Positions 702 to 63,871 of a stretch of 64,000 nucleotides of DNA are shown here, one piece after another. The notes under the pieces are model-generated. The model made no database searches. It saw only the letters and a list, made by a program, of their open reading frames with translations, and was not told the origin of the DNA. The stretch is from Pseudomonadota bacterium (GTDB lineage: Bacteria; Pseudomonadota; Gammaproteobacteria; Burkholderiales; Rhodocyclaceae), in assembly GCA_018261895.1 (NCBI GenBank), contig JAGTRT010000022.1:1-64000 (forward strand). Direction: 5' to 3'. Both the position numbers and the translations under genes were made by a program. Within the stretch, counting starts at the first letter, position 1. The number at the start of each line of letters is the position of its first letter.

Positions 702-734
702 ACGGTCAACCGGAAAAAATAGCCAAAATCGAAA
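702..734 (+). repeat. Dispersed repeat copy R1 (ACGGTCAACCGGAAAAAA family)
   Basis: The exact core ACGGTCAACCGGAAAAAA lies at 702-719, seven bases after the cysN stop. It is followed by the weaker tail TAGCCAAAATCGAAAA. It runs straight into a terminator hairpin. The same core recurs at 4343, 17123, 53266 and elsewhere in the window. Confidence 0.85.
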
Positions 735-760
735 ACGCCTCCAAATCCGGAGGCGTTTTT
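733..760 (+). terminator. Rho-independent terminator of cysN
   Basis: The arms CGCCTCC (736-742) and GGAGGCG (749-755) are extended by A-T pairs and close a six-base loop. A run of T residues follows. It sits 40 bases after the cysN stop. Confidence 0.88.
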
Positions 761-905
761 TATTTCGGACGGTCGCAATCGGCCACGGCAGCGCGACTGC
801 GGTGGGTGGGTGATATGCCCCAATTCGGGGGAACTGCCTGCCCCCAACCGGTGCCAGACTGCACAAAAATCGATTTTTCCGTTGTAAAACAAGGATTAGG
901 GTGAA

Positions 906-921
906 TGGCATGTCGCTTGCT
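906..921 (+). promoter_or_regulatory. Sigma54 (-24/-12) promoter of the PEP-CTERM gene
   Basis: TGGCATG-TCGC-TTGCT matches the RpoN consensus TGGCACG-N4-TTGCW, with GG (907-908) and GC (919-920) exactly ten bases apart. It lies 57 bases before the ATG at 979. PEP-CTERM genes of exopolysaccharide-forming proteobacteria are known to use sigma54 with the PrsK/PrsR two-component system, so the site fits the gene behind it. A perfect palindrome, AAAAATCGATTTTT, lies at 865-878; its role is unknown. Confidence 0.72.
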
Positions 922-978
922 GGGTAAGGAGCAAAACGTCGTTTCAGAATACCGCCCCAACCCCAACCGAGAATCCCC

Positions 979-1860
979 ATGCACAACAACAAGCCGGCGA
1001 TCGCCTTGGCCGTGGCTGCGTCCGCAACACTCTCCGCTCTGTTCTCCCCGTCGGCCCTGGCCGCCCCGGTCAACCTGCCCGCCGACCTGTCGACCTGGAC
1101 CTGCACGGGCAATTGCGGCGCGATGGCCGCTGCCGGCGATGTCGTGGCCTCTCCCCTGAACAACCCGAAGTACGGCTACGTCACGACCTTCAACTCGAGC
1201 AGCACGGGCGTCTCCCCGCTGGCGCTCGATGCCAACAACCGGGGCAACGGGACCGAGACGAATGGTTCGAAATTCGTGTCGAGCAGCTTCAGCGTCCAGG
1301 CGAACGACCAGCTGAACATCCATTTCAACTACGTCTCGACCGACGGCAAGGGCTTTGACGATTACGCCTAGGCCCGCCTCCTCAACGCCAGCGACAACAG
1401 CTTCGTGGCCTGGCTGTTTACGGCGCGCAGCTCGAATTCGGCCACCGGCAACATCGTCCCCGGCGACGTGGTGAGCAAGAAGGATTTCGACCCCGATGTG
1501 ACGATCACGAATTACAAGGACTTCGTCTTTACCTCCAAGACCACGGCCGACCCGGTCAACTGGTCGCCGCTCGGCGATTCGAACGGCACCTGCTGGCGCG
1601 ACAACGCGCCGGGCTGCGGCTTTACCGGCTGGCTCGAGTCGTCCCACACCTTCGCCAGCGGCGGAAGTTTCAAGCTCGAAATCGGCGTTACGAACTGGGG
1701 CGATGCGGCCTACGATTCCGGCCTCGCTTTCGATTACCAGAACCTGAACGCGGCCAACCTCGCGGCGGTTCCCGAGCCGAGCGTCTACGCCATGCTGCTG
1801 GCCGGCCTCGGCCTGCTGGGCCTGAGCATGCGCCGCTCGGCACAGCGCTCGGCCTTGTAA
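979..1860 (+). pseudogene. PEP-CTERM sorted exported protein (NF038132-like), interrupted by an in-frame TAG
   Basis: Two open stretches in the same frame (979-1371 and 1372-1860) together make a normal PEP-CTERM protein of about 293 residues. It has a signal peptide ending near SALAAPV, a beta-rich extracellular body, and the C-terminal sorting signal VPEPSVYAMLLAGLGLLGL followed by basic residues. Such signals direct proteins to the exosortase system. The TAG at 1369-1371 falls in FDDYA-stop-ARLLNA. As I recall the family, this position is tryptophan (DYAWARLLD), so one G-to-A change in TGG explains the stop. No frameshift is present and the downstream half looks well conserved. It is either a recent nonsense mutation, a base-call error, or an amber codon that is read through. 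A stem-loop follows at 1895-1923. Confidence 0.8.
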
Positions 1861-1894
1861 AAGCCGCGCCGACCAATGCCCGGCACGCCGCACC

Positions 1895-1926
1895 GGCCCG
1901 GCCACCTGACGGTGGGCCGGGCCTTA
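1895..1926 (+). terminator. Terminator hairpin after the PEP-CTERM gene
   Basis: A GC-rich stem (GGCCCGGCCACC pairing with GGTGGGCCGGGCC, one bulged G) closes a TGAC loop. It ends in a short T-rich stretch. It lies 35 bases after the stop codon. Confidence 0.7.
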
Positions 1927-2038
1927 TTCATTGCCGGCTGTTCAGGCTCGGCCAATCCCGGCTAACATAGGCGCTGTGCGCGCTCCGCGCATTTTTGTCG
2001 CGTCTTTGCGAGACCGGTTGCCGATGTGAGTTTCCAGC

Positions 2039-2854
2039 GTGCGTGTTCTGATTGTTGATGACAACGCCTCGATGCGGGCGATGCTGACGTCCCTGCTCTC
2101 CAGCCAGGGCTACCAGATGGTGGGCGCGCTGGAGGACGGCAATGGCGTCATCGAGGCCATCCGCCAGCATTCGCCGGAAATCGTCTGCCTCGACTACGAA
2201 TTGCCGGGGCGCAACGGGCTCGACATCCTGGGCGAGATCAATTCGACCTTTCCGAAGATCGACGTCCTGTTCATCACCGCCTCCGAGTCGCCGGACATCG
2301 AAGCCAGGGTCGCCGATGCCGGCGCCGCCGGCTTCCTGCGCAAACCCTTCGGGCAAAAGCAGGTCATCGACGAACTGCAGCAGGTGTGCGACACGCGTCG
2401 CCGCGCCTCGCTGGCCAAGGCAACGGAGAGCGCCCCTGCGGCCAGCGCCACGGCAGCGACTGCGCCCAAGGCCGCCCGGCGCAGCAGCGAGCGGCCCACT
2501 GCCGTCATCGCCGACGACAACAGTTCGGTGCGCCTGCTCATCAAGGGCCTGCTGGCCGAGTTGGGGATCAACGTCGTCGGCCAGGCTGCCAATGGCGAGG
2601 AAGCCGTTCGCGCCGCCCAGAACCTGAAGCCCAGTGTCATTTTTCTCGACGTCAACATGCCCATCATGTCGGGTCTTGAGGCCTTGCCGAAAATCATCGA
2701 AACTTCGCCCAGGACGGCGGTGGTCATGGTCACCGGCGACACCTCGCGGGCCATCGTCCAGCAGGCGGCCGGACTCGGTGCGCGGGGCTACATCGTCAAG
2801 CCGGTGCGGCCGGCCTATGTCGAGAATTTCCTGAAACAGCTGTTCAATCGCTGA
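2039..2854 (+). CDS. Response regulator with two receiver domains
   Basis: The 271-residue protein consists of two CheY-like receiver domains joined by an Ala/Thr-rich linker (about residues 124-150) and has no output domain. Receiver 1 (1-118) shows the acidic pair D7-D8, phospho-acceptor D52 (VCLDYELPG) and the conserved lysine in LRKPFG. Receiver 2 (about 152-271) shows ADDN, IFLDVNMP with its phospho-acceptor, a conserved threonine in VMVTGD, and KPVRP. It starts with GTG; no ATG fits the receiver N-terminus. Eighteen bases separate it from the HDOD gene behind it, so the two are probably co-transcribed and work in one signalling route. No kinase is adjacent, so its phosphate donor is unknown. 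Confidence 0.88.
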   Translation: MRVLIVDDNASMRAMLTSLLSSQGYQMVGALEDGNGVIEAIRQHSPEIVCLDYELPGRNGLDILGEINSTFPKIDVLFITASESPDIEARVADAGAAGFLRKPFGQKQVIDELQQVCDTRRRASLAKATESAPAASATAATAPKAARRSSERPTAVIADDNSSVRLLIKGLLAELGINVVGQAANGEEAVRAAQNLKPSVIFLDVNMPIMSGLEALPKIIETSPRTAVVMVTGDTSRAIVQQAAGLGARGYIVKPVRPAYVENFLKQLFNR

Positions 2855-2872
2855 ACCGAGAGGTATGCCTTC

Positions 2873-3733
2873 ATGACCTTGATGATCGATTTTCCCTTCC
2901 CCGGGCCAGGCCCGTGGGTGGATCACTTCAAGACCATCGACATTCCGGTCCTGCGCCATACCGTTCATCAGCTCAACGAGTTACGCGACGCCGCCGAAGA
3001 CATCAACACCCGGCAACTGGCCACCATCATCACGCACGACCCGCTGATGACCCTGCGCCTGTTCCAGACCATGCAGCGGATTCGCTCCAACAGCCAGTCG
3101 CGGGACATCACGACGGTCGAGCGCGCGCTGATCATGATGGGCACCCAGACCTTCTACAACAGCATCGAAAACCCGCCCATCGTCGAACAGCAGCTCAAGG
3201 GCTACCCGAAAGCCATGCTCGGCCTGCTCAAGGTCATCGCCCGCTCGCGCAACGCGTCGCGCTGGGCACTCGACTGGGCGCTGCTGCGCCAGAACGTCAG
3301 CTTCGACGAGATCGCCATGGCTGCGCTGCTCCACGACCTGGTCGAGATCCTGATGTGGTGCTTCGCGCCGAATCTTGCCATCCAGGCCCGCGACCGGCTG
3401 GTCACCGAGCCCGGACGGCGCAGCAGCCAGATCCACCAGGAAGTGTTCGGCAGCACGCTTGACGAGATCGCCGACGAACTCATTGCCTACTGGCAACTCC
3501 CGGCCCTGCTCCGCTCGCTGATCGACCCGGCCAACGCCGAGCTGGCCAATGTCAAGAACGTCCAGCTCGCCGTCGACCTCGCCCGTCACTCGGCCAACAG
3601 CTGGAACGACCCGGCGCTGCCGGACGACTACCGGGCCATCGAAACCCTGCTCCACATTGGTCACAGCAACCTGCTGGAACGTATCGGCGCGCCGGAAGAG
3701 CAGGTTCTGGCCGCCCGCCAGGCGGAGGGATAA
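2873..3733 (+). CDS. HDOD domain signalling protein
   Basis: The 286-residue protein carries an HDOD domain across most of its length. The characteristic start is IPVLRHTVHQLNELR, followed by DPLMTLRLFQTM, ALIMMGTQTF, and DEIAMAALLHDLVEILMWCF. HDOD proteins are catalytically degenerate relatives of HD phosphohydrolases and act in c-di-GMP and two-component regulation. Several are scaffolds rather than enzymes, and the complete HD-GYP metal-ligand set is not seen here. It sits 18 bases after a double-receiver regulator and 3 bases before a DUF4124 gene. A second HDOD gene at 18688-19551 has a similar layout. Confidence 0.85.
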   Translation: MTLMIDFPFPGPGPWVDHFKTIDIPVLRHTVHQLNELRDAAEDINTRQLATIITHDPLMTLRLFQTMQRIRSNSQSRDITTVERALIMMGTQTFYNSIENPPIVEQQLKGYPKAMLGLLKVIARSRNASRWALDWALLRQNVSFDEIAMAALLHDLVEILMWCFAPNLAIQARDRLVTEPGRRSSQIHQEVFGSTLDEIADELIAYWQLPALLRSLIDPANAELANVKNVQLAVDLARHSANSWNDPALPDDYRAIETLLHIGHSNLLERIGAPEEQVLAARQAEG

Positions 3734-3736
3734 GCC

Positions 3737-4303
3737 ATGTTGAAGACCAGCCTCGCACTCGCCCTGCTGGCGCTCAGCCCGCTGGCCGGTGCCGACATTT
3801 ACAAATGCCGGCTGCCGAATGGCTCGACGGAGATCTCAAACACGCCGTGCCCGACCGGCAGCGGCACGATCACCTCGCGCCCGGACGAGCGTGTATCGGA
3901 AGCGTCCCGCCGACAGGCCGAGCAGGAAGTCGAAAAGATGCGGCTTTTCGTCGAAAAACGGGAAGCCGCGCAGCGTGCCGAAGAAGCGGCAGAGCGCGAA
4001 GAGCGCGCCGCCAGCCAGCGGCAAAGCAACAGTGTCAGCCGGACGCCACGTCAATATGGCAGCCAGGACGAATGCCTGCGCGACCTCGAGCAGATGGCCC
4101 TGGAAAGCGCCCAGCGCGCCCAGATGGAGGCCGATTGCCGGGCCATCGCCAGACCGCAGACCATCTACGTTCCTGTCCCCGTGCCGGCCTATCCGACGCA
4201 CCGACCGCATCACGTCGAGCCACCGCTACAGCCGAAGCCCGCGCCCAAACCGGCAGCACCCAGCGCGCCCCAGATATCGGCGCCCCAGCTCAAGAAAAAC
4301 TAG
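3737..4303 (+). CDS. Exported DUF4124 domain protein
   Basis: The 188-residue protein starts with a signal peptide (MLKTSLALALLALSPLAGA) and then DIYKCRLPNGSTEISNTPCP, the DUF4124 pattern with a conserved cysteine pair. A charged Glu/Arg/Ala-rich probable coiled coil (about residues 55-100) follows, then a segment with two more cysteines, and a Pro-rich tail (PVPVPAYPTHRP and PKPAPKPAAP). It is expected in the periplasm. Its function is not known. It starts three bases after the HDOD gene, so it is probably in the same transcript. A dispersed repeat copy follows. Confidence 0.8.
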   Translation: MLKTSLALALLALSPLAGADIYKCRLPNGSTEISNTPCPTGSGTITSRPDERVSEASRRQAEQEVEKMRLFVEKREAAQRAEEAAEREERAASQRQSNSVSRTPRQYGSQDECLRDLEQMALESAQRAQMEADCRAIARPQTIYVPVPVPAYPTHRPHHVEPPLQPKPAPKPAAPSAPQISAPQLKKN

Positions 4304-4342
4304 GCGCTTACCAGCCCTTTTTCCCCGCCTGAGCCGAATTTC

Positions 4343-4377
4343 ACGGTCAACCGGAAAAAAAGCCCAAATTCGAAATC
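4343..4377 (+). repeat. Dispersed repeat copy R2
   Basis: The exact 18-base core ACGGTCAACCGGAAAAAA lies at 4343-4360, followed by the tail AGCCCAAATTCGAAATC. It fills most of the gap between two convergent genes and ends five bases before the stop of the minus-strand gene. GGCGCTTACC, 40 bases upstream of the core, is also found 32 bases upstream of copy R5. Confidence 0.85.
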
Positions 4378-4381
4378 CGGA

Positions 4382-4696
4382 TCAGACCGTTTCGTGGCCG
4401 CCGCCGTCTTTTTCCTGGCGGCCCAGCGTCAGTTCGGTGTTCTCGCTGAGCGCGAAGAAGAAGGCATCGACGGCATTCGGCTCGCCCGACGCAGCAAAGG
4501 TCGTCTGCCCGCACTCGCACTGACCGACCCAGATCGCATCGAGGCCGCGCAAGCCGCGCGTGCTGACCGGGTTGATGGTCGTCACATCGGCGCCGCAACC
4601 GTTGCACACCAGCTTTTCCGGACGGGTCGCTTCGATCTTGGCTTGCGCCTGGGCAATGCGGTCCGCCAGCGAACCCCGATTTTTGGCCTGTCCCAT
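4382..4696 (-). CDS. Conserved small protein with cysteine pairs
   Basis: The 104-residue soluble protein begins MGQAKNRGSLADRIAQAQAK. It carries CNGCG at about residue 34 and CECGQ at about residue 65, which could bind zinc. Similar MGQAKNRG proteins occur in betaproteobacteria, but I know of no assigned function. The ATG at 4696 is preceded by GGAG at normal spacing; a TTG five codons upstream lacks such a site and was not chosen. The gene is convergent with the DUF4124 gene. Confidence 0.75.
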   Translation of the reverse strand: MGQAKNRGSLADRIAQAQAKIEATRPEKLVCNGCGADVTTINPVSTRGLRGLDAIWVGQCECGQTTFAASGEPNAVDAFFFALSENTELTLGRQEKDGGGHETV

Positions 4697-4758
4697 GTCT
4701 TTACTCCGCAATTTTCAAAGGCTGGCAGGATACAGGACTTGCCCCTCCGGCGGCCAGC

Positions 4759-5928: not shown

Positions 5929-6010
5929 AGGCAGGAAACCGGCAATGCAACTTGGGTATGACTTTCAGCATAGAGCAAGGTTCCTTTCAAGCGCAACAGG
6001 GATAACCACG

Positions 6011-6733: not shown

Positions 6734-6736
6734 ACC

Positions 6737-7621: not shown

Positions 7622-7667
7622 GCCACAAAGGGGGATAATTCCCTGACCGGACAAGCCGAGGCACTGC

Positions 7668-8957: not shown

Positions 8958-8986
8958 AACCCGCCGCCGCAGGCGATAATTGCGGG

Positions 8987-10324
8987 ATGTCCCGTTTCCT
9001 CATCTACGCCATTGTCTTCATCGAAGGCTTCTGCTCGCTCGGCGCCGAAGTCATCGCGCTCCGGCGGCTCGTGCCGCACATCGGCAGTTCCATCGTCGTC
9101 ACGGCGCCGACCATCGGCTTCTTCCTGCTCGCGCTGGCGCTCGGTTACGCCTCGGGCGCCAGGGTCGCCGGCAACTACCTCAACATCGTCGCCCGCAATT
9201 TCCTGATCGCCGCCGCGCTCGCCGGCATCGGGCTGGCCGGCATCAGCGTCGACTGGATGTTCGCCCACCTGCAGCCGGTGCTCGTCGCCTACCTTGTCTT
9301 CATCGGCGGCGTGCTCTGCCCGCTGGCCTGGCTGCTCGGCCAGACCGTGCCAATCCTGACCAACCTCATGAAAGCCGAACGCACCGGCGAGGCGAGTGGC
9401 CTGGCTCTTTACTGGTCTACGCTCGGTTCCTTCCTCGGCTCGATCAGCCTATCGCTGCTCGTCATGCAGTGGCTCGGCGTTTCAGCGGCGGTCTTCGCCT
9501 GCGCCTTCGGGCTTCTCGTCGGCGCCGTTTTGCTAGCCGGGAAAAATTTCAAATTTTGGCTTTTTTCCGGGTTGACCGTGGGATTGTCTGCCGGACTCAA
9601 TCTGCAGCATGCCGTGACCGCCGACACGGCCTACGCCGAATACCTCATCGGCGCCGTCAATCTCCCGGGCCAGAAAGACCCGCGCGCCTTCTGGGTCAAC
9701 AAGTCGACCGCCTCGCTCATCGACAATTCCGAGCCGCCCAACTACACGCGCTACATCAGGCACCTGCGGCAGATCCTGCTCGACGACCTCGGCTTCTTCG
9801 ACAAGGACATCCTCGTCCTCGGCGCCGGCGGCTTCACGCTGTCGCACCGCGAACCGCTCAACCGCTACACCTACGTCGATATCGACCCGGCCATCAGGGA
9901 CATCGCCGAAAAGCACTTCCTGCGCGAACCGGCCCGTGGTGAATTCATCACCGACGACGCCCGCCGCTTCGTGGCGACCAGCGAACGTCGCTTCGACGCC
10001 GTCGTCGTCGATGTCTACAGCTCGCACACCTCGATTCCCAGCCACCTCGTCACCCGCGAGTTCTGGGCCGGCACGCGCCGCGTCCTCAAGCCGGACGGCG
10101 TGCTGCTCGCCAATCTGATCCTCGACGGCAAGCTCGAAAGCCCCTACGCCCGTAGCCTGCTCGCTACCATCGACAGCGTTTTCGGCCGCTGCGCCGTCGA
10201 CGTGCTGCACAAAGGCAAGGCGCTGGCCAACGTCGAAGTCAGCTGCTTCGCGAGCAGCCAGCCCAGCGAAACGGGCATCTACGTGGATGAGAAAAACCGG
10301 GCCGACCTCGACCGGGCAAAATGA
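8987..10324 (+). CDS. Membrane-fused spermidine-synthase-like protein
   Basis: The 445-residue protein combines an N-terminal membrane part with several helices (about residues 1-210) and a C-terminal class I methyltransferase-like, spermidine-synthase fold (about 235-430). The fold has the nucleotide-binding motif ILVLGAGGFTLS followed by YTYVDIDPAI, then FITDDARRF and DAVVVDVYSS. Such fusions exist in many bacteria and their aminopropyl-transfer activity is mostly unproven. Residues about 185-200 (KNFKFWLFSGLTVG) are encoded by a reversed copy of the dispersed repeat (R3) and fall in the last hydrophobic segment of the membrane part. Convergent with the small gene that follows, two bases away. 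Confidence 0.82.
   Translation: MSRFLIYAIVFIEGFCSLGAEVIALRRLVPHIGSSIVVTAPTIGFFLLALALGYASGARVAGNYLNIVARNFLIAAALAGIGLAGISVDWMFAHLQPVLVAYLVFIGGVLCPLAWLLGQTVPILTNLMKAERTGEASGLALYWSTLGSFLGSISLSLLVMQWLGVSAAVFACAFGLLVGAVLLAGKNFKFWLFSGLTVGLSAGLNLQHAVTADTAYAEYLIGAVNLPGQKDPRAFWVNKSTASLIDNSEPPNYTRYIRHLRQILLDDLGFFDKDILVLGAGGFTLSHREPLNRYTYVDIDPAIRDIAEKHFLREPARGEFITDDARRFVATSERRFDAVVVDVYSSHTSIPSHLVTREFWAGTRRVLKPDGVLLANLILDGKLESPYARSLLATIDSVFGRCAVDVLHKGKALANVEVSCFASSQPSETGIYVDEKNRADLDRAK
9541..9579 (-). repeat. Dispersed repeat copy R3, inside a coding sequence
   Basis: Read on the minus strand this is ACGGTCAACCCGGAAAAAAG (one extra C), then CCAAAATTTGAAATTTTT. It lies wholly inside the spermidine-synthase-like gene, opposite to the direction of transcription. 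It is translated there as a hydrophobic stretch (FKFWLFSGLTVG). Confidence 0.8.
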
Positions 10325-15500: not shown

Positions 15501-15704
15501 TTCGTGCTCGGCGTCTTCCCGCTGGTCAAGGCCACCGGCGCCGGCGCTGCCGCCCGCCAGTCGATGGGGACCGGCGTCTTCGGCGGCATGCTCGCCGCCA
15601 CCTTCATCGCCACCATTTTCGTGCCGCTCTTCTTCAAGTGGCTGGAACGTGGCAAACAGATCGACCCCTCGCACTTTGAAGCGAACGAGGAGGAAAAAGC
15701 ATGA
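12582..15704 (+). CDS. RND multidrug efflux pump, inner membrane subunit (AcrB/MexB, HAE1)
   Basis: The 1040-residue proton-driven trimeric transporter has the standard length for hydrophobe/amphiphile efflux pumps. It starts MSRFFINRPIFASVISIIIVIAG (first membrane helix). Both periplasmic loops are complete, and the proton-relay helix carries the essential aspartate pair in GIVVDDAIVVLENVERLM. The second half has QIGLVVLIGLASKNAILIVEF and RLRPIIMTS. The closest well-studied relatives are AcrB, MexB and TtgB, pumps for antibiotics, dyes, solvents and detergents. Its own substrate range cannot be read from sequence. Confidence 0.96.
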   Translation: MSRFFINRPIFASVISIIIVIAGLVASQVLPIAQYPQIAPPTVLITATYPGASAETLAKTVAAPIEEQLNGVENMVYFNSSATANGTVTITATFEVGTNVDMAAVNVNNRVKAAEPRLPESVRRNGVIVQKRSNDILQVVALKSDGGKYSTLYLSNYASLNIVDELKRVKGVGDVTIFGAQDYSMRVWLKPDRMAQLGLTSAEVAAAISAQNAQNAAGKIGQEPAPNDQQLVYTVTAKGRLLTEEEFGNIVIRASGPGGLLRLKDVARIELGAYSYDQRVTLDGQPTIAMGVFLQTGANALEVAEAVRVKMVELKAKFPEAMDYVIPFDTTRFVSASIKEVRNTLIEAMILVLAVVFLFLQSWRATLIPMVAVPISLIGTFAGLWLFGFSINTLTLFAMVLAIGIVVDDAIVVLENVERLMAEEKLPPKQAAIKAMHQVTGALIAIVLVLVSVFVPVAFLGGIAGQLYKQFAVTVAVAVVLSGVVALTLTPALCALLLKAQHTENKLFAPFNRLFERLTNNYTRTVGLTMRHGIIGTLVFAAVIGVTVFFFRVIPGSFVPAEDQGYLISALILPDGATLKRTEKTGEGMRQMIAQDEAVKHTFIVSGFDLIGGGNKPNAGTMFIPLKDWSERQGKAQDLAGKFMGIGMMQPDGMGLVFNPPPIMGLGTAGGFEVYVQNRVDGDARRLNEVTQNFMEELKKHPEFTRISTFFRPTVPQLFVEVDEQKALALGIPVADIYSTLQSTMGALYVNDFNKAGRVYRVQLQAEAPYRMKPDDIGKVYVRSTTTNAMIPLSAVSRVKNIVGPEQVERFNGFIAAKVMGDSKPGVSSGDAIKIVEEVANATLPDGFGISWTGQAFQEKRSSGSSAQAFGFAIIMVFLILAAQYEKWSLPVAVVMAVPFALMGALTAIWLRGMPNDIYFQIGLVVLIGLASKNAILIVEFAAQKYAEGMSAADAAIEAARLRLRPIIMTSLAFVLGVFPLVKATGAGAAARQSMGTGVFGGMLAATFIATIFVPLFFKWLERGKQIDPSHFEANEEEKA

Positions 15705-17104
15705 TGCCCCGCATCGCAACCCGACTGACCCCGCTGGTCATCGCGCTGGCCATGGCCGGCTGCGCCCTCGGCCCGGACTACGTGCGCCCGGCGGCGCCGC
15801 TGCCGGCGGCCTACGCCGAAGCTGACCAGAACGCCGAGCAAAGCCTCGTCAATCCGCGCTGGTGGACGCTGTTCCAGGACGCCGACCTCGACGATCTCGT
15901 CGACCAGGCCCTGAAAAACAACGCCGACCTGCGTCAGGCCATCGCCCGCGTCGAGCAGGCCGATGCCGTCGCCCGCGAGGCCGGCGCCGCCCTCCTGCCG
16001 GCAATCAACGGCGATGCCGGCATCACGAACTCGAAGGCGAGTACCCGGACGTCGACCTACGTGTCGACCATGCCGCGCATCCGCCATTCGCGCAGCGCAG
16101 CGCTGAGCACCAGCTACGAAATCGACATCTGGGGCCGCGCCCGCCGTACCCGCGAGGCCTCGCAGGCCGCGCTGCTGGCCAGCGAGTATTCGCGTGACGC
16201 CATCCGGCTGTCGATCGCCGGCCTGGTCGCCAGCAACTACCTGGCCCTGCGCGCCCTCGACGCCCAGCTGGCGGTCAGCAGCGAAACGCTGGCCAGCCGC
16301 GAGGAAAGCCTGAAACTGGTGCGCAGCCGCAACGACGCCGGCCTGGTTTCGCCGCTCGACCTACATCAGGCCGAAAGCAGCCTGGCCGCCGTCCAGGCCC
16401 AGCAGGCCGACCTGCGTCGCCAGCGGGCGCTGACCGAGCACCAGCTGGCGCTCATCGTCGGCCAGCCGGATCTCAAGCTGGCGCCCGGCGACGTGCGTCA
16501 ATTGCCGCTGCCGCCGGCGCCGCCGGCCGGTCTGCCGGCCCAGCTCGTCGAGGCCCGCCCCGACGTTCGCCAGGCCGAGCAGGAGCTGGTCGCTGCCAAC
16601 GCCGGCATCGGCGTCGCCAAGGCCGGCTATTTCCCGCGCTTCACGCTGACCGGCAGTCTGGGCAGCGAGAGCAAGGCTCTGGGCGACCTCTTCTCGGCTG
16701 GCGCTGGTACTTGGGCGCTGGGTCTCGGCGCCACGGTACCGCTGCTCGATTTCGGCCGAACCACGGCGCGCGTCGACCAGGCCAAGGCGCTCACTCAGCA
16801 ATCTCTGATCGGCTGGGAACAGACGCTACAAACGGCCTACAAGGAAGTGCGCGACGCGCTGGTCAGCCTGCGCGAGAACGGCGAGGCCGAAACGGCGCAA
16901 GGCAAGCGCTACGTCGCCGCCAAACGCTCGCTCGACCTGGCCAACCTGCGCTACGAATCGGGTTACGTCGGCTACCTCGAGGTACTCGATGCCCAGCGCA
17001 GCAGCAACGACGCCCTGACCGCCCTGATCGCCACCCGCCAGGCCCGCCTGGCCTCGGCGGTCGATCTGTTCAAGGCGCTCGGTGGCGGCTGGAAGCCGGA
17101 ATAA
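15701..17104 (+). CDS. RND efflux outer membrane channel (OprM/TtgC/NodT family lipoprotein)
   Basis: The 467-residue TolC-like channel completes the tripartite pump. The signal peptide ends with the lipobox MAGC, followed by ALGPDYVRPA, a typical OprM start. Two outer membrane factor repeats follow (about 60-250 and 270-460), with VEARPDVRQAEQELVAANAGIGVAKAGYFPR at the repeat junction. The ATG overlaps the pump stop (ATGA at 15701-15704) and is preceded by GGAGG, so translation is coupled. Dispersed repeat R4 and a bidirectional terminator follow. Confidence 0.94.
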   Translation: MMPRIATRLTPLVIALAMAGCALGPDYVRPAAPLPAAYAEADQNAEQSLVNPRWWTLFQDADLDDLVDQALKNNADLRQAIARVEQADAVAREAGAALLPAINGDAGITNSKASTRTSTYVSTMPRIRHSRSAALSTSYEIDIWGRARRTREASQAALLASEYSRDAIRLSIAGLVASNYLALRALDAQLAVSSETLASREESLKLVRSRNDAGLVSPLDLHQAESSLAAVQAQQADLRRQRALTEHQLALIVGQPDLKLAPGDVRQLPLPPAPPAGLPAQLVEARPDVRQAEQELVAANAGIGVAKAGYFPRFTLTGSLGSESKALGDLFSAGAGTWALGLGATVPLLDFGRTTARVDQAKALTQQSLIGWEQTLQTAYKEVRDALVSLRENGEAETAQGKRYVAAKRSLDLANLRYESGYVGYLEVLDAQRSSNDALTALIATRQARLASAVDLFKALGGGWKPE

Positions 17105-17122
17105 GCCGGAATGGGCAATTTG

Positions 17123-17151
17123 ACGGTCAACCGGAAAAAATGCCCAAAATC
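17123..17151 (+). repeat. Dispersed repeat copy R4
   Basis: The exact core ACGGTCAACCGGAAAAAA lies at 17123-17140, followed by TGCCCAAAATC. It begins 18 bases after the channel gene stop and runs into a bidirectional terminator, the same arrangement as copy R1 behind cysN. Confidence 0.85.
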
Positions 17152-17177
17152 AAAAAGCCGGCGAATGCCGGCTTTTT
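17152..17177. terminator. Bidirectional terminator between the RND operon and rlmB
   Basis: A perfect 11-base-pair stem, AAAAAGCCGGC / GCCGGCTTTTT, closes a GAAT loop. It has a T run on each strand, so it can end transcription of the convergent genes on both sides. Confidence 0.9.
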
Positions 17178-50795: not shown

Positions 50796-52046
50796 GTGAC
50801 GCCTGATTTCACTTTCGTTTTTCTCGTTTTTTTCCTGTTGACCGTCACAGTCCGCCTGTGGCTCAAGCGTCGGCACATTCGCTTCGTAGACGCGCATCGC
50901 AACGCCGTACCGGCCGACTTCGCCGAACGCATTGCCCTCGCTGACCATCAAAAAGCCGCCGCCTACACGGTGGACCGCAGCAAGATCGCCATGGTCGGCA
51001 CCCTGATCGAGGCGGCCATGTTGATTGCCTTCACGCTGGGTGGCGGCCTCGCGGCGCTGCACGATATCTGGTCGGTCCGCCTTGACGGCCTCGCCTACGG
51101 ACTGGCGATGATTTTCAGCCTGATGTTCATTTCCGGCCTGATCGACTTGCCGCTATCGCTCTACAGCCAGTTCGTGGTCGAGGCTCGCCACGGCTTCAAC
51201 CGCATGACGCTGGGCCTGTTCTTCACGGACTTGCTCAAGCAGACCGTGCTGGGCGTCGCCATCGGCGCCCCGGTCATAGCCGCCGTCCTTTGGCTCATGG
51301 GCGCGATGGGCGAATACTGGTGGCTTTACGTCTGGCTGTTCTGGAGCGGTTTCAACCTGCTCATCATGTTCGTTTACCCGACCTGGATTGCACCGCTCTT
51401 CAACAAGTTCTCGCCGCTCGAAGAGGGTGAGATGAAATCGCGCATCGAGGCGCTGCTGGGGCGTTGCGGCTTTCGCTCCTCGGGCCTCTTCGTGATGGAT
51501 GGCTCGAAGCGTTCCAGCCACGGCAACGCCTATTTCACGGGCTTTGGCAACAACAAGCGGATCGTCTTCTTCGACACCCTGCTCGCCCGCCTCGCGCCGA
51601 CCGAGGTCGAGGCCGTGCTGGCCCATGAACTGGGTCATTTCCGGAAAAAGCACGTGGTCAAGCGCATGGTCCTGATGTTCGCCGGATCGCTCGGTTTTCT
51701 CTGGCTGCTCGGCCAGTTGATCGACGCCCCCTGGTTCTATGCCGGGCTCGGCGTACCGGCGCAGAACACGACGTTGGCGCTGATCCTGTTCTTCCTTGTC
51801 ATGCCGGTATTCACCTTCCCGCTCAGCCCGCTGATGAGCCACTTTTCCCGCCAGCATGAATTCGAGGCGGACGCCTATGCGGCGGAGAATGCCTCGGCCG
51901 ACGATCTCGTGCACGCCCTGGTCAAGCTCTATCAGGACAATGCTTCTACCCTGACGCCCGACCCGCTACACTCGTTGTTTTACGACTCCCATCCACCGGC
52001 AGCCCAGCGCATCGCGCACCTGCAAGCCCAGGAGAATCCCGCATGA
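50796..52046 (+). CDS. M48-family membrane metalloprotease (Ste24/CAAX-protease type)
   Basis: This 416-residue zinc protease has an N-terminal membrane domain (about 1-190, several helices) of the M48 N-terminal family. The catalytic part carries HELGH (in [15 protein letters not shown]) and the distal zinc ligand in [10 protein letters not shown]. Eukaryotic Ste24 relatives cut prenylated proteins; bacterial members probably process or degrade membrane proteins. The start is GTG. The codons for residues about 11-17 (VFFLLTV) overlap a weaker reversed copy of the dispersed repeat (R8). It overlaps the cytochrome gene by four bases. Confidence 0.88.
50827..50845 (-). repeat. Possible degenerate repeat copy R8 in the M48 protease gene
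   Basis: Read on the minus strand this is ACGGTCAACAGGAAAAAAA, one mismatch from the core (A for C). It is followed by a less similar A-rich tail. It is read as hydrophobic residues in the first helix of the protease. Since Leu/Phe-rich helices favour such bases, it could be chance. Confidence 0.45.
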
Positions 52047-52357
52047 AGACGCTCTACGCACTGCTTGCCGCCACCCTGGCACCGCCGCTCGTCGCAGCTG
52101 CGGAACCCTGGGGCGACGCCGATCCAAAAAACGGCAAGGAACATCATGACAAGGCGTGCATCGCCTGCCACGTCCGCTATTACGGCGGCGACGGCAGCAA
52201 GATGTACACCCGCGACGGCCGCCTGCTGTCGACCCAGCTCGACGTCCTGCAACGCGTCGCCACCTGCAATTCGCAGGTCAAGGCCGGCTGGTTTCCGGAA
52301 GAGGAAGCCGAGGTCGCGGCCTATCTGAACCAGCAGTACTACCGCTTCAAAAACTGA
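52043..52357 (+). CDS. Small periplasmic monohaem cytochrome c
   Basis: The 104-residue protein has a signal peptide ([22 protein letters not shown]) and one haem-binding motif CIACH at about residues 39-43. A mature domain of about 84 residues follows. A possible distal methionine is in GSKMYTRDG. It is a class I-like electron carrier of unknown partner. It overlaps the protease stop (ATGA) and the rsgA start (TGATG), so all three genes are translationally coupled. Confidence 0.85.
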   Translation: MKTLYALLAATLAPPLVAAAEPWGDADPKNGKEHHDKACIACHVRYYGGDGSKMYTRDGRLLSTQLDVLQRVATCNSQVKAGWFPEEEAEVAAYLNQQYYRFKN

Positions 52358-53223
52358 TGGAAGGACGCGTCATCGCCGCGCATGGCCGCCAGTACATCGT
52401 CGAACTGGCGGATGCCAGGCGACTGAGCTGTTTCCCCCGGGGCAAGAAAAGCGACGTCGCCTGCGGTGACCGCGTCAATATCCAGCAGACCGCCGACGAC
52501 CAGGGCGTGATCGAGGCAATCGAGCCGCGCAGCAGCCTGCTCTACCGCTCCAACGAAATCCGCCAGAAACTGATTGCCGCCAATGTCGATCAGCTGATCA
52601 TCGTCGTTGCCACCGAACCGGCCTTTTCCGACGAGTTGATCAGCCGCGCCCTGGTGGCCGCGGAAAGCGAGGAGATCAGCGCGCTCATCATCCTCAACAA
52701 GTGTGACCTCACCGACCGGCTGGCCGGCGCCCGCCAGCGGCTGGCGGTCCTCGCCGCGCAGGGCTATCGCGTCCTCGAACTCTCCGCCCGCGACCACGCC
52801 GATGACCTGCGTCCCTGGCTTGCCGGCCAGACCAGCGTGCTCGTCGGCCAGTCCGGCATGGGCAAATCGACCCTGGTCAATGCGCTGATTCCCGAAGCCC
52901 GGGCGGCGACCCGCGAGATATCGCTGGCGCTCGACTCCGGCAAGCACACCACGACGCACGCCACGCTCTACCACCTTGACGCCGACTCGCACCTGATCGA
53001 CTCGCCCGGCCTGCAGGAATTCGGTCTGGGCCACCTCGACCGCCAGGAAATCGAAATCGCCTTTCCCGAGTTCCGCCCATTTCTCGGCAAATGCCGCTTT
53101 CGCGATTGCCACCACCACAAGGAACCCGACTGCGCCCTGATCGCGGCCGTCGACGCCGGCCACATCGACAAGGCGCGCTTTGCCATCTATCACCGCATCG
53201 TCGGCAACCAGCGCGACAACTGA
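52357..53223 (+). CDS. rsgA: Ribosome small subunit-dependent GTPase RsgA
   Basis: This 288-residue circularly permuted GTPase checks late 30S maturation. It has an N-terminal OB fold (about 1-65) and G motifs in permuted order (NKCD, then GQSGMGKSTLVNAL, then DSPGLQEFGL). A C-terminal zinc knuckle follows (CRFRDCHHHKEPDC). The ATG at 52357 overlaps the cytochrome stop as TGATG; a longer frame upstream is antisense-like and was not used. rsgA near orn is a common proteobacterial association. Confidence 0.95.
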   Translation: MEGRVIAAHGRQYIVELADARRLSCFPRGKKSDVACGDRVNIQQTADDQGVIEAIEPRSSLLYRSNEIRQKLIAANVDQLIIVVATEPAFSDELISRALVAAESEEISALIILNKCDLTDRLAGARQRLAVLAAQGYRVLELSARDHADDLRPWLAGQTSVLVGQSGMGKSTLVNALIPEARAATREISLALDSGKHTTTHATLYHLDADSHLIDSPGLQEFGLGHLDRQEIEIAFPEFRPFLGKCRFRDCHHHKEPDCALIAAVDAGHIDKARFAIYHRIVGNQRDN

Positions 53224-53265
53224 GACGCAGCCTGGCGCTTACCGGGACCGGCAATTCGCGATTTC

Positions 53266-53300
53266 ACGGTCAACCGGAAAAAAAGCCCAAAATTGAAATT
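53266..53300 (+). repeat. Dispersed repeat copy R5
   Basis: The exact core ACGGTCAACCGGAAAAAA lies at 53266-53283, followed by AGCCCAAAATTGAAATT, the fullest form of the tail. It lies 43 bases after the rsgA stop. A small AT-rich hairpin (GGTTTTT/AAAAACC, 53311-53329) follows, without a T run. Confidence 0.85.
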
Positions 53301-53429: not shown

Positions 53430-54515
53430 ATGAGCGAGAGACCACCGACCATACTCATCGTCGACGACACGCCGGAGAACCTCAGTGTCCTCGGTGAGTT
53501 GTTGCAACCCACCTATCGGGTACGCGCCGCCAACTCCGGCCGGCGCGCCCTGCAGATCGCGCAGGGCACCCCGACGCCGGACCTCATCCTGCTCGACGTC
53601 ATGATGCCGGAGATGGATGGTTACGACGTGCTGGCCGAACTGCGCGCCTCGCCGCTCACCCGCAACATCCCCGTAATCTTCGTGACTGCCATGGACGGCA
53701 CCGAGGACGAGGAACGCGGGCTGGATCACGGCGCCGTCGACTACATCACCAAACCGATCCGCCCCAGCATCGTCCTCGCCCGCATCCGGACCCAGCTCGA
53801 CCTCAAGCAGGCCCGCGACATCCTCAGCGACCAGAACAGCTACCTGGAAGCCGAAGTGGTCCGCCGCATGGGCGAAAACCAGTTGATCCAGGAAGTCAGC
53901 ATTCACGCACTGGCCCGCCTGGCCGAGACCCGCGACCCGGAAACCGGCAAGCACCTCCGGCGCACGCAGGAATACGTTCTGACGCTGGCCAGGGCCCTGC
54001 GCAATCACTCGCGCTTCAGCGCGTATCTCGACGAACGCACCATCAATGCCCTCGCGCAGTCCGCACCGCTGCACGACATCGGCAAGGTCGGCATTCCCGA
54101 CCACATCCTCCTCAAGCCCGGCAAACTGACGCCGGAAGAGTGGACGATCATGAAGACCCATGCCGAACTGGGCAGCAACGCCATCGCCCAAGCCGAGGCT
54201 GATGCCGAAAAGCCAGTCGAATTCCTGGCGATCGCCAAATTGATTGCCCGCTCGCATCACGAAAAATGGGATGGCACGGGCTACCCCGACGGACTCAAGG
54301 GCGACGCCATCCCCGTCGCCGCGCGCCTGATGGCCTTGGCCGACGTGTTCGACGCCCTGACCTGCAAGCGCGTCTACAAGCAGGCCTTTTCCTTCGATGA
54401 AGCCTATCGCATCATCGTCGAGGGAAGAGGAACCCATTTCGACCCCGACATCGCCGAGGCTTTCGTGCGCGAGTACGCCACCTTCATCACGATCGCCAAA
54501 ACCTACGCCGAATAA
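53430..54515 (+). CDS. HD-GYP response regulator, predicted c-di-GMP phosphodiesterase
   Basis: The 361-residue protein joins a receiver domain (about 1-125; VDDTPEN, phospho-acceptor in LILLDVMMPEMDG, FVTAMDG, ITKPI) to an HD-GYP domain (about 150-355). The HD-GYP signature is complete: HDIGKVGIPD and SHHEKWDGTGYPDGLKGD. It is therefore expected to hydrolyse c-di-GMP when phosphorylated. It leads an operon with two hybrid kinases (the first three bases downstream), which makes them its probable phosphate donors. Confidence 0.93.
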   Translation: MSERPPTILIVDDTPENLSVLGELLQPTYRVRAANSGRRALQIAQGTPTPDLILLDVMMPEMDGYDVLAELRASPLTRNIPVIFVTAMDGTEDEERGLDHGAVDYITKPIRPSIVLARIRTQLDLKQARDILSDQNSYLEAEVVRRMGENQLIQEVSIHALARLAETRDPETGKHLRRTQEYVLTLARALRNHSRFSAYLDERTINALAQSAPLHDIGKVGIPDHILLKPGKLTPEEWTIMKTHAELGSNAIAQAEADAEKPVEFLAIAKLIARSHHEKWDGTGYPDGLKGDAIPVAARLMALADVFDALTCKRVYKQAFSFDEAYRIIVEGRGTHFDPDIAEAFVREYATFITIAKTYAE

Positions 54516-60900: not shown

Positions 60901-62623
60901 CGCCTTCCTGGCCAACATCAGCCACGAGATCCGGACGCCGATGAACGCCATCATCGGCCTCACCCACATTGCCCAGCGCAGTGCCGGCAGCAGCGAGCAG
61001 CAGGAACGCCTGGGCAAGGTGGCGGAGGCGGCGCAACACCTCATGAGCATCATCAACGATGTGCTCGACATTTCGAAAATCGAAGCCGGCAAGCTGCAAC
61101 TGGAAAGCACCGTCTTCTCGCTGGCCCATATCTGCGAAAGCACCTGCGAAATGGTCGCCGAGCGCGCCCATGCCAAGAATTTGCCGGTCAAATACCACCT
61201 CGATCCGAGCGTCCCCGCCAGCCTGTTCGGCGACCCCCTGCGGGTGCAGCAGATCCTGCTCAACTTCCTGTCAAACGCGATCAAATTCACCCATCGCGGC
61301 TCGATCGATGTCCGCATGAAACTGCTCAGCCAGCGAGGCGGCAATGCCGTGATTCGTTGCGAAGTCAGCGACACCGGTATCGGCATCACGCCGGAGGCCA
61401 TGACCAAGCTTTTCCTGCCGTTCGAGCAGGGCGACACCTCGACCACCCGCCGCTACGGTGGCACCGGCCTGGGGCTCGCGATCAGCCGCCGCCTGGCCGA
61501 AGCGATGAACGGTGAAATCGGCGTTGACAGCCAGATCGGCAAAGGCAGCACCTTCTGGTTCACGGCCCAGTTCGGCGTGACGAACGAGCGCGAAGCTTCG
61601 CCCGCGCCGGGTGCCGGCAAGGCCAGCACCTATCAGCGGGGTGCGCATGTGCTGGTTGCCGAAGACAATGCCATCAATGCCGAAGTGGCCAGCGAACTGC
61701 TGCAGACCGCCGGCTTCAAGGTCGACCTCGCCGAAAACGGTGCCCAGGCGCTCGAGCTCGCGCGTCGACGCCACTACGACCTCGTGCTCATGGACATGCA
61801 GATGCCGGTGATGGATGGTCTGGAGGCGACCCGCCAGATCCGCTCGCTGCCTGGCTGGAGCAAGATTCCGATTCTGGCCATGACGGCCAACGCCTTCGAC
61901 GAGGACCGCGACGTCTGCCTGGCAGCCGGCATGAACGACCACGTCGCCAAGCCGGTCGCCCCGAACGTGCTCTACGAAGCCCTTGCCCGCTGGTTGCCGA
62001 CCAAGGAACCGGCGCCGCCCGCGGTCGAAGTCAAAGTTGCCAGCGGTAATGAACTCGCCGGCATTTCCGGCCTGGACGCCCATTTCGGCCTGCAATCGGT
62101 ACGCGGACGGATGGACAGCTACCTCCGGCTGCTGAGCAAATTCTCGGAACACCATCAGGACGACTTTGTCGGCATCCGCAAGAACCTGGCGAACGGGAAT
62201 ACAGCAGAAGCCCGGCGCCTGGCCCATTCGCTCAAGGGCGTTTCGGCCACGCTCGGTGCGGTTCACATCAACAAGACCTCGATGGCCCTGGAAACGGCCA
62301 TCAAGGAAGAGCGGACGATGGCCGAGATCGAGCCGCTGATCGTCGCGGCGGAAGAAGCCTACTCGTCCCTGTGCCGCGATCTGGCGGCCGTTTCGCAACC
62401 GCAGGAGTCGGCCGACGAAGGCGTCGATGCCGCCGCCACCGCGGCGCTCGTCGAAAAACTCCGGCGCGAATTGCAGCAGGGTGAAATGAGTGTGCAGGAT
62501 CTCGTTCGCCAACACGCCCGCAGCCTGAGCAAGCACATCGGCGACAAGTACCGGGCCTTCGAGGAGTGCATCTTTGCCTTCGACTTCGAAGGTGCGCTGG
62601 CCATCCTCAACGACGGCAACTGA
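57941..62623 (+). CDS. Cytoplasmic hybrid histidine kinase with four CBS domains, PAS and GAF sensors
   Basis: This 1560-residue protein has no membrane helix. Domains in order: four CBS repeats (about 10-65, 72-130, 140-190, 200-260), PAS (280-400), GAF (415-560), three PAS (590-705, 715-825, 835-950), HisKA ([16 protein letters not shown]), HATPase_c ([16 protein letters not shown]), receiver ([13 protein letters not shown]) and Hpt ([13 protein letters not shown]). A C-terminal helical piece of about 60 residues closes it. CBS pairs usually bind adenine nucleotides, so the kinase may read cell energy state along with PAS/GAF signals. The ATG at 57941 overlaps the upstream stop as ATGA; an earlier in-frame ATG lies inside the previous gene. 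Confidence 0.92.
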
Positions 62624-62638
62624 GCTGGCGGGGACGGC

Positions 62639-63871
62639 CTAGCCCGCCTGCCCTTCCAGCCAGCGTGCGGCCCCCAGTCCGGCAGCGCGGCCGCTGGCGA
62701 AACAGGCGGTGAGCAGATAGCCGCCGGTCGGCGCCTCCCAGTCCAGCATCTCGCCGGCGCAAAAAACGCCGGGCATGCGGCGCAGCATCAGCGACTCGTC
62801 CACCGCCTCGAAGGTCACGCCGCCCGCCGTGCTGATCGCCTCGTCGATCGGCCGCGTCGCCGTCACCCGCAGCGGCAGGGCCTTGATGGCCGCCGCCAGG
62901 GCGCCCGGCGCATTCAAGCTTGCCGCCTCGCAGCATTCGCGCAGCAAGCCGGCCTTGACGCCCTCGATGCCGGCATGACGGCGCAGATGATTGGCCAGCG
63001 AATCGCGCCCGCGCGGCCGCGACAGGTCGGCGAGCAGGCGTTCGTGGCTGCGCCCGGGTGCCAGATCGAGGTGGAGGACGGCCGAACCGTCACGGGCCAG
63101 CGCATCGCGCAAAGGGGCCGACACCGCGTAGATCAGGCCGCCCTCGACGCCGGTCGCCGAAATATTGAATTCGCCCTTTTTTTCCGGTTGACCGTCAAAT
63201 CGGGCCGTAACCGCCTTGACCGGAGCGCCGGCGAAACGCTCGCTGAAATACGGGCTCCACGCCACGTCGAAACCGCAATTGGCCGGCTTGAGCGGCGCCA
63301 CGTCGATGCCGCGATCGGCCAGCATGGGCACCCAGGTGCCATCCGAACCGAGCTTGGCCCAGCTGCCGCCACCCAGCGCCAGAATGACCGCATCGGCGTG
63401 GACGACAATCTCGCCGGCGGGCGTTGCGAAGCGCAGGCTGCCGTCGGCCGCCCAGCCCAGCCAGCGGTGGCGCACATGAAAGCTCACGCCCTGCCCGCGC
63501 AGGCGGTGCAGCCAGGCGCGCAGGAGCGGTGCCGCCTTCATTTCGGAGGGAAAGACCCGGCCCGAGGTGCCGACGAAGGTATCGATGCCCAGCCCGTGGA
63601 TCCATTCGCGCAGTTGCGTCGGGCCGAAGGCGTCGAGCAGCGGCGCGATCTGCGCCGAGCGCTCGCCGTAGCGCCCGATGAAATCGGGCAGCGGTTCGGC
63701 GTGCGTGATGTTCATGCCGCCCTTGCCGGCCATCAGGAACTTGCGGCCGACCGAGGGCATGGATTCGTAAATTTGAATAATTTTCCGGTTGACCGTCAAA
63801 TCGCTGGTCGCCAGCATTTCAGCCGCCATGAGCCCGGCCGGACCGCCGCCGATGATGGCGACGCGCTGCAT
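62639..63871 (-). CDS. FAD-dependent oxidoreductase of the TIGR03862/BaiN type
   Basis: The 410-residue flavoprotein starts with the FAD-binding motif AIIGGGPAGLMAAEML and continues MPSVGRKFLMAGKGGMNITHAE. It ends GVFCAGEMLDWEAPTGGYLLTACFASGRAAG, matching the HI0933/BaiN group of uncertain substrate. Two copies of the dispersed repeat lie inside the gene in the sense direction but in different frames. R7 encodes DLTVNRK after the first helix, and R6 encodes FDGQPEKK in the middle domain. The ATG at 63871 is chosen; the frame stays open to the window edge (acidic VTVIPLDEEEIPEELL), so a longer protein or an upstream gene in the same frame cannot be excluded. Confidence 0.85.
   Translation of the reverse strand: MQRVAIIGGGPAGLMAAEMLATSDLTVNRKIIQIYESMPSVGRKFLMAGKGGMNITHAEPLPDFIGRYGERSAQIAPLLDAFGPTQLREWIHGLGIDTFVGTSGRVFPSEMKAAPLLRAWLHRLRGQGVSFHVRHRWLGWAADGSLRFATPAGEIVVHADAVILALGGGSWAKLGSDGTWVPMLADRGIDVAPLKPANCGFDVAWSPYFSERFAGAPVKAVTARFDGQPEKKGEFNISATGVEGGLIYAVSAPLRDALARDGSAVLHLDLAPGRSHERLLADLSRPRGRDSLANHLRRHAGIEGVKAGLLRECCEAASLNAPGALAAAIKALPLRVTATRPIDEAISTAGGVTFEAVDESLMLRRMPGVFCAGEMLDWEAPTGGYLLTACFASGRAAGLGAARWLEGQAG
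63161..63198 (-). repeat. Dispersed repeat copy R6, inside the flavoprotein gene
   Basis: On the minus strand the exact 18-base core lies at 63195-63178, preceded by ATTTG as in R4 and R7. It is followed by a less conserved A/T-rich tail. It is translated as RFDGQPEKKGEF. Confidence 0.83.
63770..63799 (-). repeat. Dispersed repeat copy R7, inside the flavoprotein gene
   Basis: On the minus strand the first 16 bases of the core (ACGGTCAACCGGAAAA) are exact, then TTATTCAAATTT. It is translated as DLTVNRKIIQI, one frame different from R6 in the same gene. Confidence 0.82.

What the first reader, a model, noticed from the sequence alone, without database searches (positions are those of the whole stretch)
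702..63796. A dispersed repeat family with core ACGGTCAACCGGAAAAAA
I see four exact copies of the 18-base core on the plus strand (702, 4343, 17123, 53266), one exact minus copy (63178-63195), two near-exact minus copies (9561-9579, 63779-63796) and one weaker copy (50827-50845). A 16-base word is expected far less than once by chance in 64 kb. Most copies share an extended form: ATTT(C/G) before the core and GCCCAAAATTGAAA after it. The element is neither a simple palindrome nor a known uptake signal that I recognise. It could be a short non-autonomous mobile element, a DNA uptake or chromosome-organisation signal, or a transcript-end element.
Basis: seen in the sequence. Interest (0 to 1): 0.78.

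Follow-up and report, generated by a model that had tools for sequence, protein, structure and literature searches.

The report
Uptake-signal-like DNA tag in Azonexus
Many bacteria of the Azonexus/Dechloromonas group carry hundreds of copies of one short DNA word that looks and evolves like the self-recognition tags by which some naturally transformable bacteria choose which DNA to take up, a kind of system described so far in two other bacterial families.

Summary
The repeat is real and genome-wide: 402 copies (up to 2 mismatches) in the own genome, 0 for the reversed word. The full unit is about 42 bp: a core (ACGGTCAACCGG here) followed by A/T tracts about one helical turn apart. In the genus, 40 of 76 genomes hold 120-787 copies of this architecture, 26 hold 0-14; none of 369 other genomes of the class exceeds 7. 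Core dialects differ between species, and at a gene inside the window all 15 carriers compared keep a dialect copy at the same codons, 11 low-copy genomes none. Two coding copies show no gap against their 240 aligned homologues, so they arose by substitution. Copies show no strand bias, are denser outside genes, spaced more regularly than random, and perfect cores outnumber one-off cores; a 34-kb integrated island has none. These are published hallmarks of DNA uptake sequences (USS of Pasteurellaceae, DUS of Neisseriaceae); a mobile element or terminator fits poorly. Best reading: a third family of DNA-uptake signals. Uptake and receptor are untested; comEC integrity does not separate carriers from non-carriers, and opposed pairs are not enriched.

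The parts
695..736 (+). copy 1 (62 bits), between a 172-aa frame with an EF-Tu-type C-terminal domain (176-694) and the frame 760-1905 (-)
   Evidence: a separate hairpin with T run follows at 736-761
4336..4377 (+). copy 2 (68 bits), just 3' of frame 3805-4332
9545..9586 (-). copy 3 (57 bits), inside the spermidine-synthase-like gene 8987-10324, antisense; no gap in 120 aligned homologues
17116..17157 (+). copy 4 (65 bits), 3' of the outer-membrane efflux protein gene 15701-17104
   Evidence: a separate hairpin follows from 17152
50811..50852 (-). copy 6 (44 bits), at the 5' end of the M48 peptidase frame 50796-52046, antisense
53259..53300 (+). copy 7 (68 bits), between the RsgA GTPase gene 52156-53223 and the frame 53430-54515
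63161..63202 (-). copy 8 (49 bits), in the HI0933-like flavoprotein gene 62639-63967; present in 9 of 15 carriers and 0 of 11 low-copy genomes
63762..63803 (-). copy 9 (40 bits), same gene; core RCGGTSRAC in 15 of 15 carriers, each in its own dialect, and 0 of 11 low-copy genomes

Best explanation
The element is a DNA uptake signal: a self-recognition tag read by a DNA receptor of the type IV pilus/competence machinery, working like the USS of Pasteurellaceae. A receptor would bind the GC core (R CGGT S R AC), and the downstream A/T tracts, about one helical turn apart, would ease bending or melting during uptake. Fragments with a good match are taken up and recombined more often, so matches accumulate in place by mutation plus biased uptake (molecular drive). 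When the receptor changes, the genome drifts to a new dialect at the same positions; when it is lost, the sites erode. Shown here: sequence, architecture, dialects, conserved positions, gap-free origin at two coding copies, patchy absence, no copy in one integrated island. Inferred: uptake function, receptor, drive.
For: Architecture: at all core matches, the second tract is wholly A/T in 45-64% in six carrier genomes against 0-4% at control positions, and in 0-15% in non-carriers G017, G034, G071 (dialects). Abundance: 40 of 76 genus genomes with 120-787 copies, strands about equal, reversed control at most 4. Dialects at the same positions. Orthologous retention: 36 of 37 site-by-genome comparisons in carriers (10 sites of one contig), 1 of 26 in other genomes. 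In-place origin: no gap at two coding copies in 240 aligned rows, the two queries included; at the flavoprotein gene RCGGTSRAC stands at the same codons in 15 of 15 carriers and 0 of 11 others (read), and the Val/Ile codon in the second tract ends in T in 15 of 15 versus 1 of 11. Hallmarks given in PMC1626085 (Background read) and met here: no orientation bias, spacing more regular than random (CV 0.67, KS p 0.001), excess in non-coding DNA (38 of 77 and 44 of 98 sites), more perfect than singly mismatched 12-bp cores (56 vs 19; 54 vs 28). Foreign DNA: 0 sites in a 33.7-kb recombinase-bearing island that splits comEC in G002, 6 in the 26.3 kb around it. ComEC and ComP_DUS-family pilins occur in 26 of 27 genomes each.
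Against: I found no uptake or transformation datum for these bacteria. ComEC integrity does not predict carriage: an open frame of 700 aa or more in 33 of 40 carriers and 15 of 26 low-copy genomes (6 and 7 shorter, 1 and 4 without a hit), Fisher p 0.19 without the hitless. No receptor was identified; PF16732 and PF12019 homologues occur in carriers and non-carriers alike. Density is about 1 per 4-6 kb, lower than the about 1 per kb given for USS and DUS in PMC1626085. Pairs closer than 100 bp are not enriched (1 seen, 2.4 expected). For the bare 9-mer ACGGTCAAC one-off words outnumber perfect ones (147 vs 77, 165 vs 82), though the reversed 9-mer shows a like background (154 vs 7, 127 vs 8). 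Some gains in non-coding DNA or linkers come with length differences near element size (36-37 bp upstream of a FabG-like gene). The core is partly palindromic. Regular spacing would also suit a chromosome-organising site.
Confidence: 0.7

Rival explanations
1. Chromosome-organisation sites: several hundred binding sites of a sequence-specific nucleoid protein (in the manner of Noc, SlmA or MatP, named from recall) that bends DNA with phased A-tracts.
For: Partly palindromic core, up to ACGGTCGACCGT in G086 and G030; spacing more regular than random; retention at orthologous places.
Against: The unit is directional, tracts on one side only; perfect 12-bp cores outnumber one-off cores, which PMC1626085 contrasts with sites of intracellular regulators; dialects change while positions stay; no orientation bias relative to GC skew of the blocks (78 versus 97, p 0.17, though single blocks run 15:2 or 1:11); nearly the whole set is missing from 26 of 76 congeneric genomes. 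PMC1939737 (passages) argues against chromosome compaction for known uptake sequences.
Confidence: 0.17
2. A short non-autonomous mobile element (MITE-like, REP-like or like Rickettsia palindromic elements, all recalled) that spread by copying and inserting.
For: Very uniform consensus, 53 and 49 bits in two genomes; presence and absence accompanied by 36-37 bp length difference at one intergenic site, and by a length-variable linker at another.
Against: No gap at two coding copies; at window 63162-63195 the second tract is the GAATTC of a conserved GEFNI stretch that low-copy genomes have too; carriers of different dialects share positions; no match beyond chance in plasmid or phage records. 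Target duplications and an autonomous relative were not searched for.
Confidence: 0.04
3. A transcript-end or RNA-level regulatory element in 3' untranslated regions.
For: Non-coding copies are enriched between convergent genes (21 seen, 10.4 expected) and rarer between divergent genes (10 seen, 19.2 expected).
Against: 39 of 77 and 54 of 98 copies lie inside coding sequence, in both orientations relative to the gene (19:20 and 33:21); no Rfam family at the copies; the two copies folded (695-736, 17116-17157) form no more structure than shuffles, while separate hairpins with T runs stand directly after them (the pattern scan did not list those two hairpins). Avoidance of promoters would give the same bias.
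Confidence: 0.04

Closest known systems
Uptake signal sequence (USS) of Pasteurellaceae: Hin type AAGTGCGGT, Apl type ACAAGCGGT
   Same: GCGGT in several Azonexus dialects (inner core GCGG in USS); two A/T tracts on the 3' side about one turn apart, A's and T's mixed; hundreds of copies, no orientation bias, regular spacing, non-coding excess, strong consensus, dialects, origin by substitution (USS features as given in PMC1626085 and PMC12616744).
   Different: Seven further conserved bases (CRACCGG in the own clade) between GGT and the first tract; longer, more informative unit (about 50 bits); own-clade core is ACGGT; about 1 per 4-6 kb instead of about 1 per kb; opposed pairs not enriched; another lineage; uptake not tested.
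DNA uptake sequence (DUS) of Neisseriaceae, receptor ComP
   Same: Dialects, genome-wide abundance; ComP_DUS-family pilins present in 26 of 27 genomes.
   Different: DUS has no flanking A/T motifs and another core (GCCGTCTGAA, inner core CTG; PMC1626085, PMC12616744); the pilin hits do not track carriage.
Rickettsia palindromic elements, REP and MITE elements (recalled)
   Same: Short, dispersed, in genes and between genes.
   Different: Those insert; the two coding copies tested by the gap test did not.

Membership tests
DNA uptake signal sequences (USS/DUS) | Hundreds to thousands of copies of one short directional motif per genome, far above chance | tested here: met
   402 copies at up to 2 mismatches, reversed control 0; 518 by architecture pattern, control 0
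DNA uptake signal sequences (USS/DUS) | No orientation bias | tested here: met
   259 forward, 259 reverse; 78 versus 97 relative to block GC skew, p 0.17; ori/ter not mapped
DNA uptake signal sequences (USS/DUS) | Excess in non-coding DNA, with many copies in genes | tested here: met
   38 of 77 and 44 of 98 not wholly inside CDS, expected 11.7% and 8%; gene calls are from my own simple finder
DNA uptake signal sequences (USS/DUS) | More perfect than singly mismatched cores | tested here: met
   56 vs 19 and 54 vs 28 for the 12-bp core, reversed word 0 vs 8 and 0 vs 11; not so for the bare 9-mer, whose one-off words are near background
DNA uptake signal sequences (USS/DUS) | Spacing somewhat more regular than random | tested here: met
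   CV 0.67 over 99 sites in 400 kb of G002, KS p 0.001 with the mean taken from the data
DNA uptake signal sequences (USS/DUS) | Some closely spaced, oppositely oriented pairs | tested here: not met
   one pair under 100 bp in G002, 2.4 expected for any orientation; a pair also at G000 C41; no enrichment shown
DNA uptake signal sequences (USS/DUS) | Arises by substitution, not insertion | tested here: met
   no gap at two coding copies in 240 aligned rows (best 120 of 1,382 and 1,059 hits, carriage known for few); flavoprotein copies: substitution with one residue more at copy 8 in the close carriers and longer inserts in G067 and G033; some non-coding gains differ by indels
DNA uptake signal sequences (USS/DUS) | Related dialects within the clade | tested here: met
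DNA uptake signal sequences (USS/DUS) | Preferential uptake of DNA that carries the motif | not testable with these tools
   needs a competent strain
DNA uptake signal sequences (USS/DUS) | Cell-surface receptor that reads the motif | not tested
   candidate minor pilins located; no binding or coevolution test made
Pasteurellaceae USS in the strict sense | Core ANNNGCGGT followed directly by an A/T segment | tested here: not met
   GCGGT in several dialects, but a CRAC-type stretch separates it from the first tract, and the own clade has ACGGT
Mobile repeat (MITE/REP/RPE) | Gain by insertion | tested here: inconclusive
   not met at two coding copies; a few non-coding or linker gains come with length differences
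Intrinsic terminator or RNA family | Hairpin with T run, or an Rfam family, formed by the element itself | tested here: not met

The most novel reading that the evidence does not exclude
Azonexus/Dechloromonas possess a third, so far undescribed family of DNA-uptake signals, with at least five species dialects and repeated loss within one genus. Its GCGGT core plus two A/T tracts resembles the Pasteurellaceae USS design, so that either the same class of minor-pilin receptor was recruited twice or the mechanics of pilus-driven DNA uptake favour this shape of signal.
Probability: 0.6. Interest if true: 0.88.

Novelty: new variant of a known kind. Interest (0 to 1): 0.82.

Why it matters
[quoted passage not shown] A third family, in bacteria from water, sludge and groundwater MAGs, would show that such codes arise outside the two host-associated families. 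A genus with 40 carriers, 26 near-empty genomes and several dialects is a natural experiment on how uptake codes arise, switch and die, and matched dialect and receptor sets could point to the receptor, which that paper still calls unidentified for the USS.

Tried and rejected
Mobile-element reading: orthologous empty sites and the protein gap test; rejected for the coding copies tested, open for a few non-coding gains; no search for target duplications or a parent element was made. Terminator/RNA reading: Rfam, pattern scan, folds; rejected. Replication polarity (Chi/KOPS-like, recalled): counts and GC-skew test; not supported at this resolution; a complete-genome ori/ter map was asked for and not obtained. 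Plasmid or phage origin: chance-level only; one exact copy in one viral contig, in a phage-like reading frame, not followed further. Loss of comEC as the cause of absence: 76 genomes, no significant association. Pilin families as receptor: PF16732 and PF12019 occur regardless of carriage.

Literature: phrase pairs gave 0 papers for 'DNA uptake sequence' + Dechloromonas and 'uptake sequence' + Rhodocyclaceae, and one for 'uptake sequence' + Azonexus (PMC7593972, listing only, on a Neisseria pilus factor). Searches returned capped lists (20 of 119, 20 of 49, 15 of 2,275) and no listed title joins uptake sequences with this group; one search gave 0; one search was on spacing. Subscription papers and preprints are not in that library.

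Rows dropped: one search kept only comparisons with both flanks aligned (63 rows from 77 query sites); the 37 carrier rows come from 10 sites, all on contig C5, and the 26 other rows from 5 sites; loci fetched because they held the motif were left out there. In one search genome G035 had only a paralogue and is left out (26 of 27 used). The tree rests on few proteins of one region (one present in 28, one in 3 of 39 genomes).
Full report
WHAT WAS CHECKED. The own genome (3.3 Mb, 93 contigs) holds 402 copies at up to 2 mismatches, 205 forward and 197 reverse, reversed word 0. A profile built from 463 kb of the own genome gives 77 sites at 14 bits or more, one per 6 kb, and one from 400 kb of the relative G002 gives 98, one per 4 kb, with no hit at that threshold in reversed sequence.

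ANATOMY. Conserved columns run from about -6 to +34: a T at -3, the core ACGGTCAACCGG, an A/T tract at 13-18 (AAAAAA, AAATTT, AAATAA), a GGCC-like spacer, a second A/T tract at 24-28 and, in this clade, a third at 31-34. Conservation falls off sharply on both sides. Interchange of A and T in the tracts suggests that the property, not the letters, is kept.

WHERE IT IS. 39 of 77 sites in G000 and 54 of 98 in G002 lie wholly inside predicted genes, in both orientations (gene calls by a simple codon-usage finder of my own). Against the small non-coding fraction this is a strong non-coding excess. Non-coding sites prefer convergent gaps and are rarer in divergent ones. The copies at 702 and 17123 stand directly before separate hairpins with T runs; the copies themselves fold no better than shuffles.

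GENUS-WIDE PICTURE. The architecture pattern RCGGTSRAC-N6-WWW-N6-WWWW was counted in the 76 genus genomes given: 40 have 120-787 copies, 10 have 21-93, 26 have 0-14; reversed control at most 4 per genome. In 369 other genomes of the class (4 of them of the same order) none has more than 7, where reversed controls reach 13; 24 genomes of other families of the order have at most 2 copies of the 18-mer. On a tree of 39 genomes from one 20-kb region, carriers and low-copy genomes are intermixed, and three relatives of carriers (G005, G007, G072) keep reduced numbers (93, 33, 35), which reads as repeated loss with erosion.

DIALECTS. Word counts in 60-120 kb per genome found CTGCGGTC(A/G)AC in G033, CTGCGGT(C/G)(A/G)AC in G013 and TTGCGGTCGAC in G019, while G017, G034 and G071 gave no such word. 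Each dialect keeps both tracts. At core matches the second tract is entirely A/T in 45-64% in six carriers against 0-4% at control positions; in non-carriers G017, G034 and G071 it is 0-15%, in the reduced G072 45% and in G005 7%.

SAME PLACE, DIFFERENT DIALECT. Of 37 site-by-genome comparisons in carriers, from 10 sites of contig C5 ascertained in the own genome, 36 keep an element; of 26 in the other genomes (three of them reduced carriers), one does. At the HI0933-like flavoprotein gene in the window (62639-63967, Pfam) the 15 carriers with an orthologue have RCGGTSRAC at the codons of copy 9, in their own dialect, and none of 11 low-copy genomes (1-93 copies) do (read). There the second tract falls on a Val/Ile codon that ends in T in 15 of 15 carriers and 1 of 11 others, p 2e-6, not corrected for kinship. 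The one exception, G034, lies inside a carrier clade (support 1.0 for the clade, 0.6 for its place in it). Copy 8 of the same gene is confined to 9 of the 15 carriers.

ORIGIN. At copy 8 the second tract is the GAATTC of a conserved GEFNI stretch that low-copy genomes have too; the close carriers have one residue more there, G067 and G033 longer inserts. Against a pure substitution story, one intergenic copy (L100:983) differs from the empty relative G035 by 36-37 bp, and a linker copy sits in a length-variable segment.

FOREIGN DNA. In G002, comEC is split by a 33.7-kb stretch of lower GC (0.515) with a serine recombinase and a phage-type integrase. It holds no site; the 26.3 kb around it hold six. 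The motif was not found above chance in 72,556 plasmid or 50,697 phage records; one viral contig holds one exact copy.

READING. The Background of PMC1626085 (read) lists for USS and DUS: no orientation bias, spacing somewhat more regular than random, preference for non-coding DNA, more perfect than singly mismatched copies, opposed pairs; its passages add A/T segments 3' of the core and origin by substitution. All but the pairs are met here, the substitution test at two to four coding copies. The Introduction of PMC12616744 (read) names Neisseriaceae and Pasteurellaceae as the only families known, with inner cores CTG and GCGG; GCGGT is in several Azonexus dialects. I therefore take the element for an uptake signal, at 0.7. 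What is missing is any uptake experiment and a receptor: ComEC and pilin families are present nearly everywhere and do not track carriage.

PAPERS. PMC1626085: passages and the Background section. PMC12616744: abstract, outline, Introduction. PMC1939737 and PMC3630211: passages only. PMC7811141, PMC2397512, PMC7593972: listing with the start of the abstract. Statements on Noc, SlmA, MatP, Chi, KOPS, REP and Rickettsia elements are recalled.

Noticed in passing
G002 C33:109609-143310 (L305-L307): comEC is split by a 33.7-kb island with a serine recombinase; comEC hits are similarly split about 32.5 kb apart in G068, and shorter comEC frames occur in G018, G028, G088, G035, G081 and G005; contig ends were not excluded for those drafts. 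comEC may be a repeated integration site in this genus.
   Followed up: partly
   Followed up: no
orthologues of G000 C5:25732 in G067 (L145), G005 (L151), G072 (L150): A different GC-rich dispersed-looking repeat (GGGGAGAGGGGCCGGGGGAGAGGGG) sits in the same protein linker where carriers have the uptake-like element.
   Followed up: no
G079, orthologue of G000 C5:40984 (L141): One copy of the element is interrupted by a 16-bp insertion.
   Followed up: no
ispH-argG interval (L308, L309, L310, L314, L315): The minor-pilin cluster near this place differs strongly in gene order and size between species, including PilY1-like large proteins (gene names from recall of the sequences, not from a family search): a place to look for the receptor.
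   Followed up: no
L319:9696-9713 (IMGVR_UViG_3300033565_000011): Single exact copy of the 18-mer in a viral contig, in a reading frame that reads GQPEKK as in the host gene at 63162-63195.
   Followed up: no
window 17158-50810: Only one weak site (38372) lies in this stretch, the longest sparse stretch of the window; not tested whether it is acquired DNA.
   Followed up: no
L024: An exact copy in a 6-kb contig labelled uncultured Pseudodesulfovibrio; binning error or transfer, not checked.
   Followed up: no
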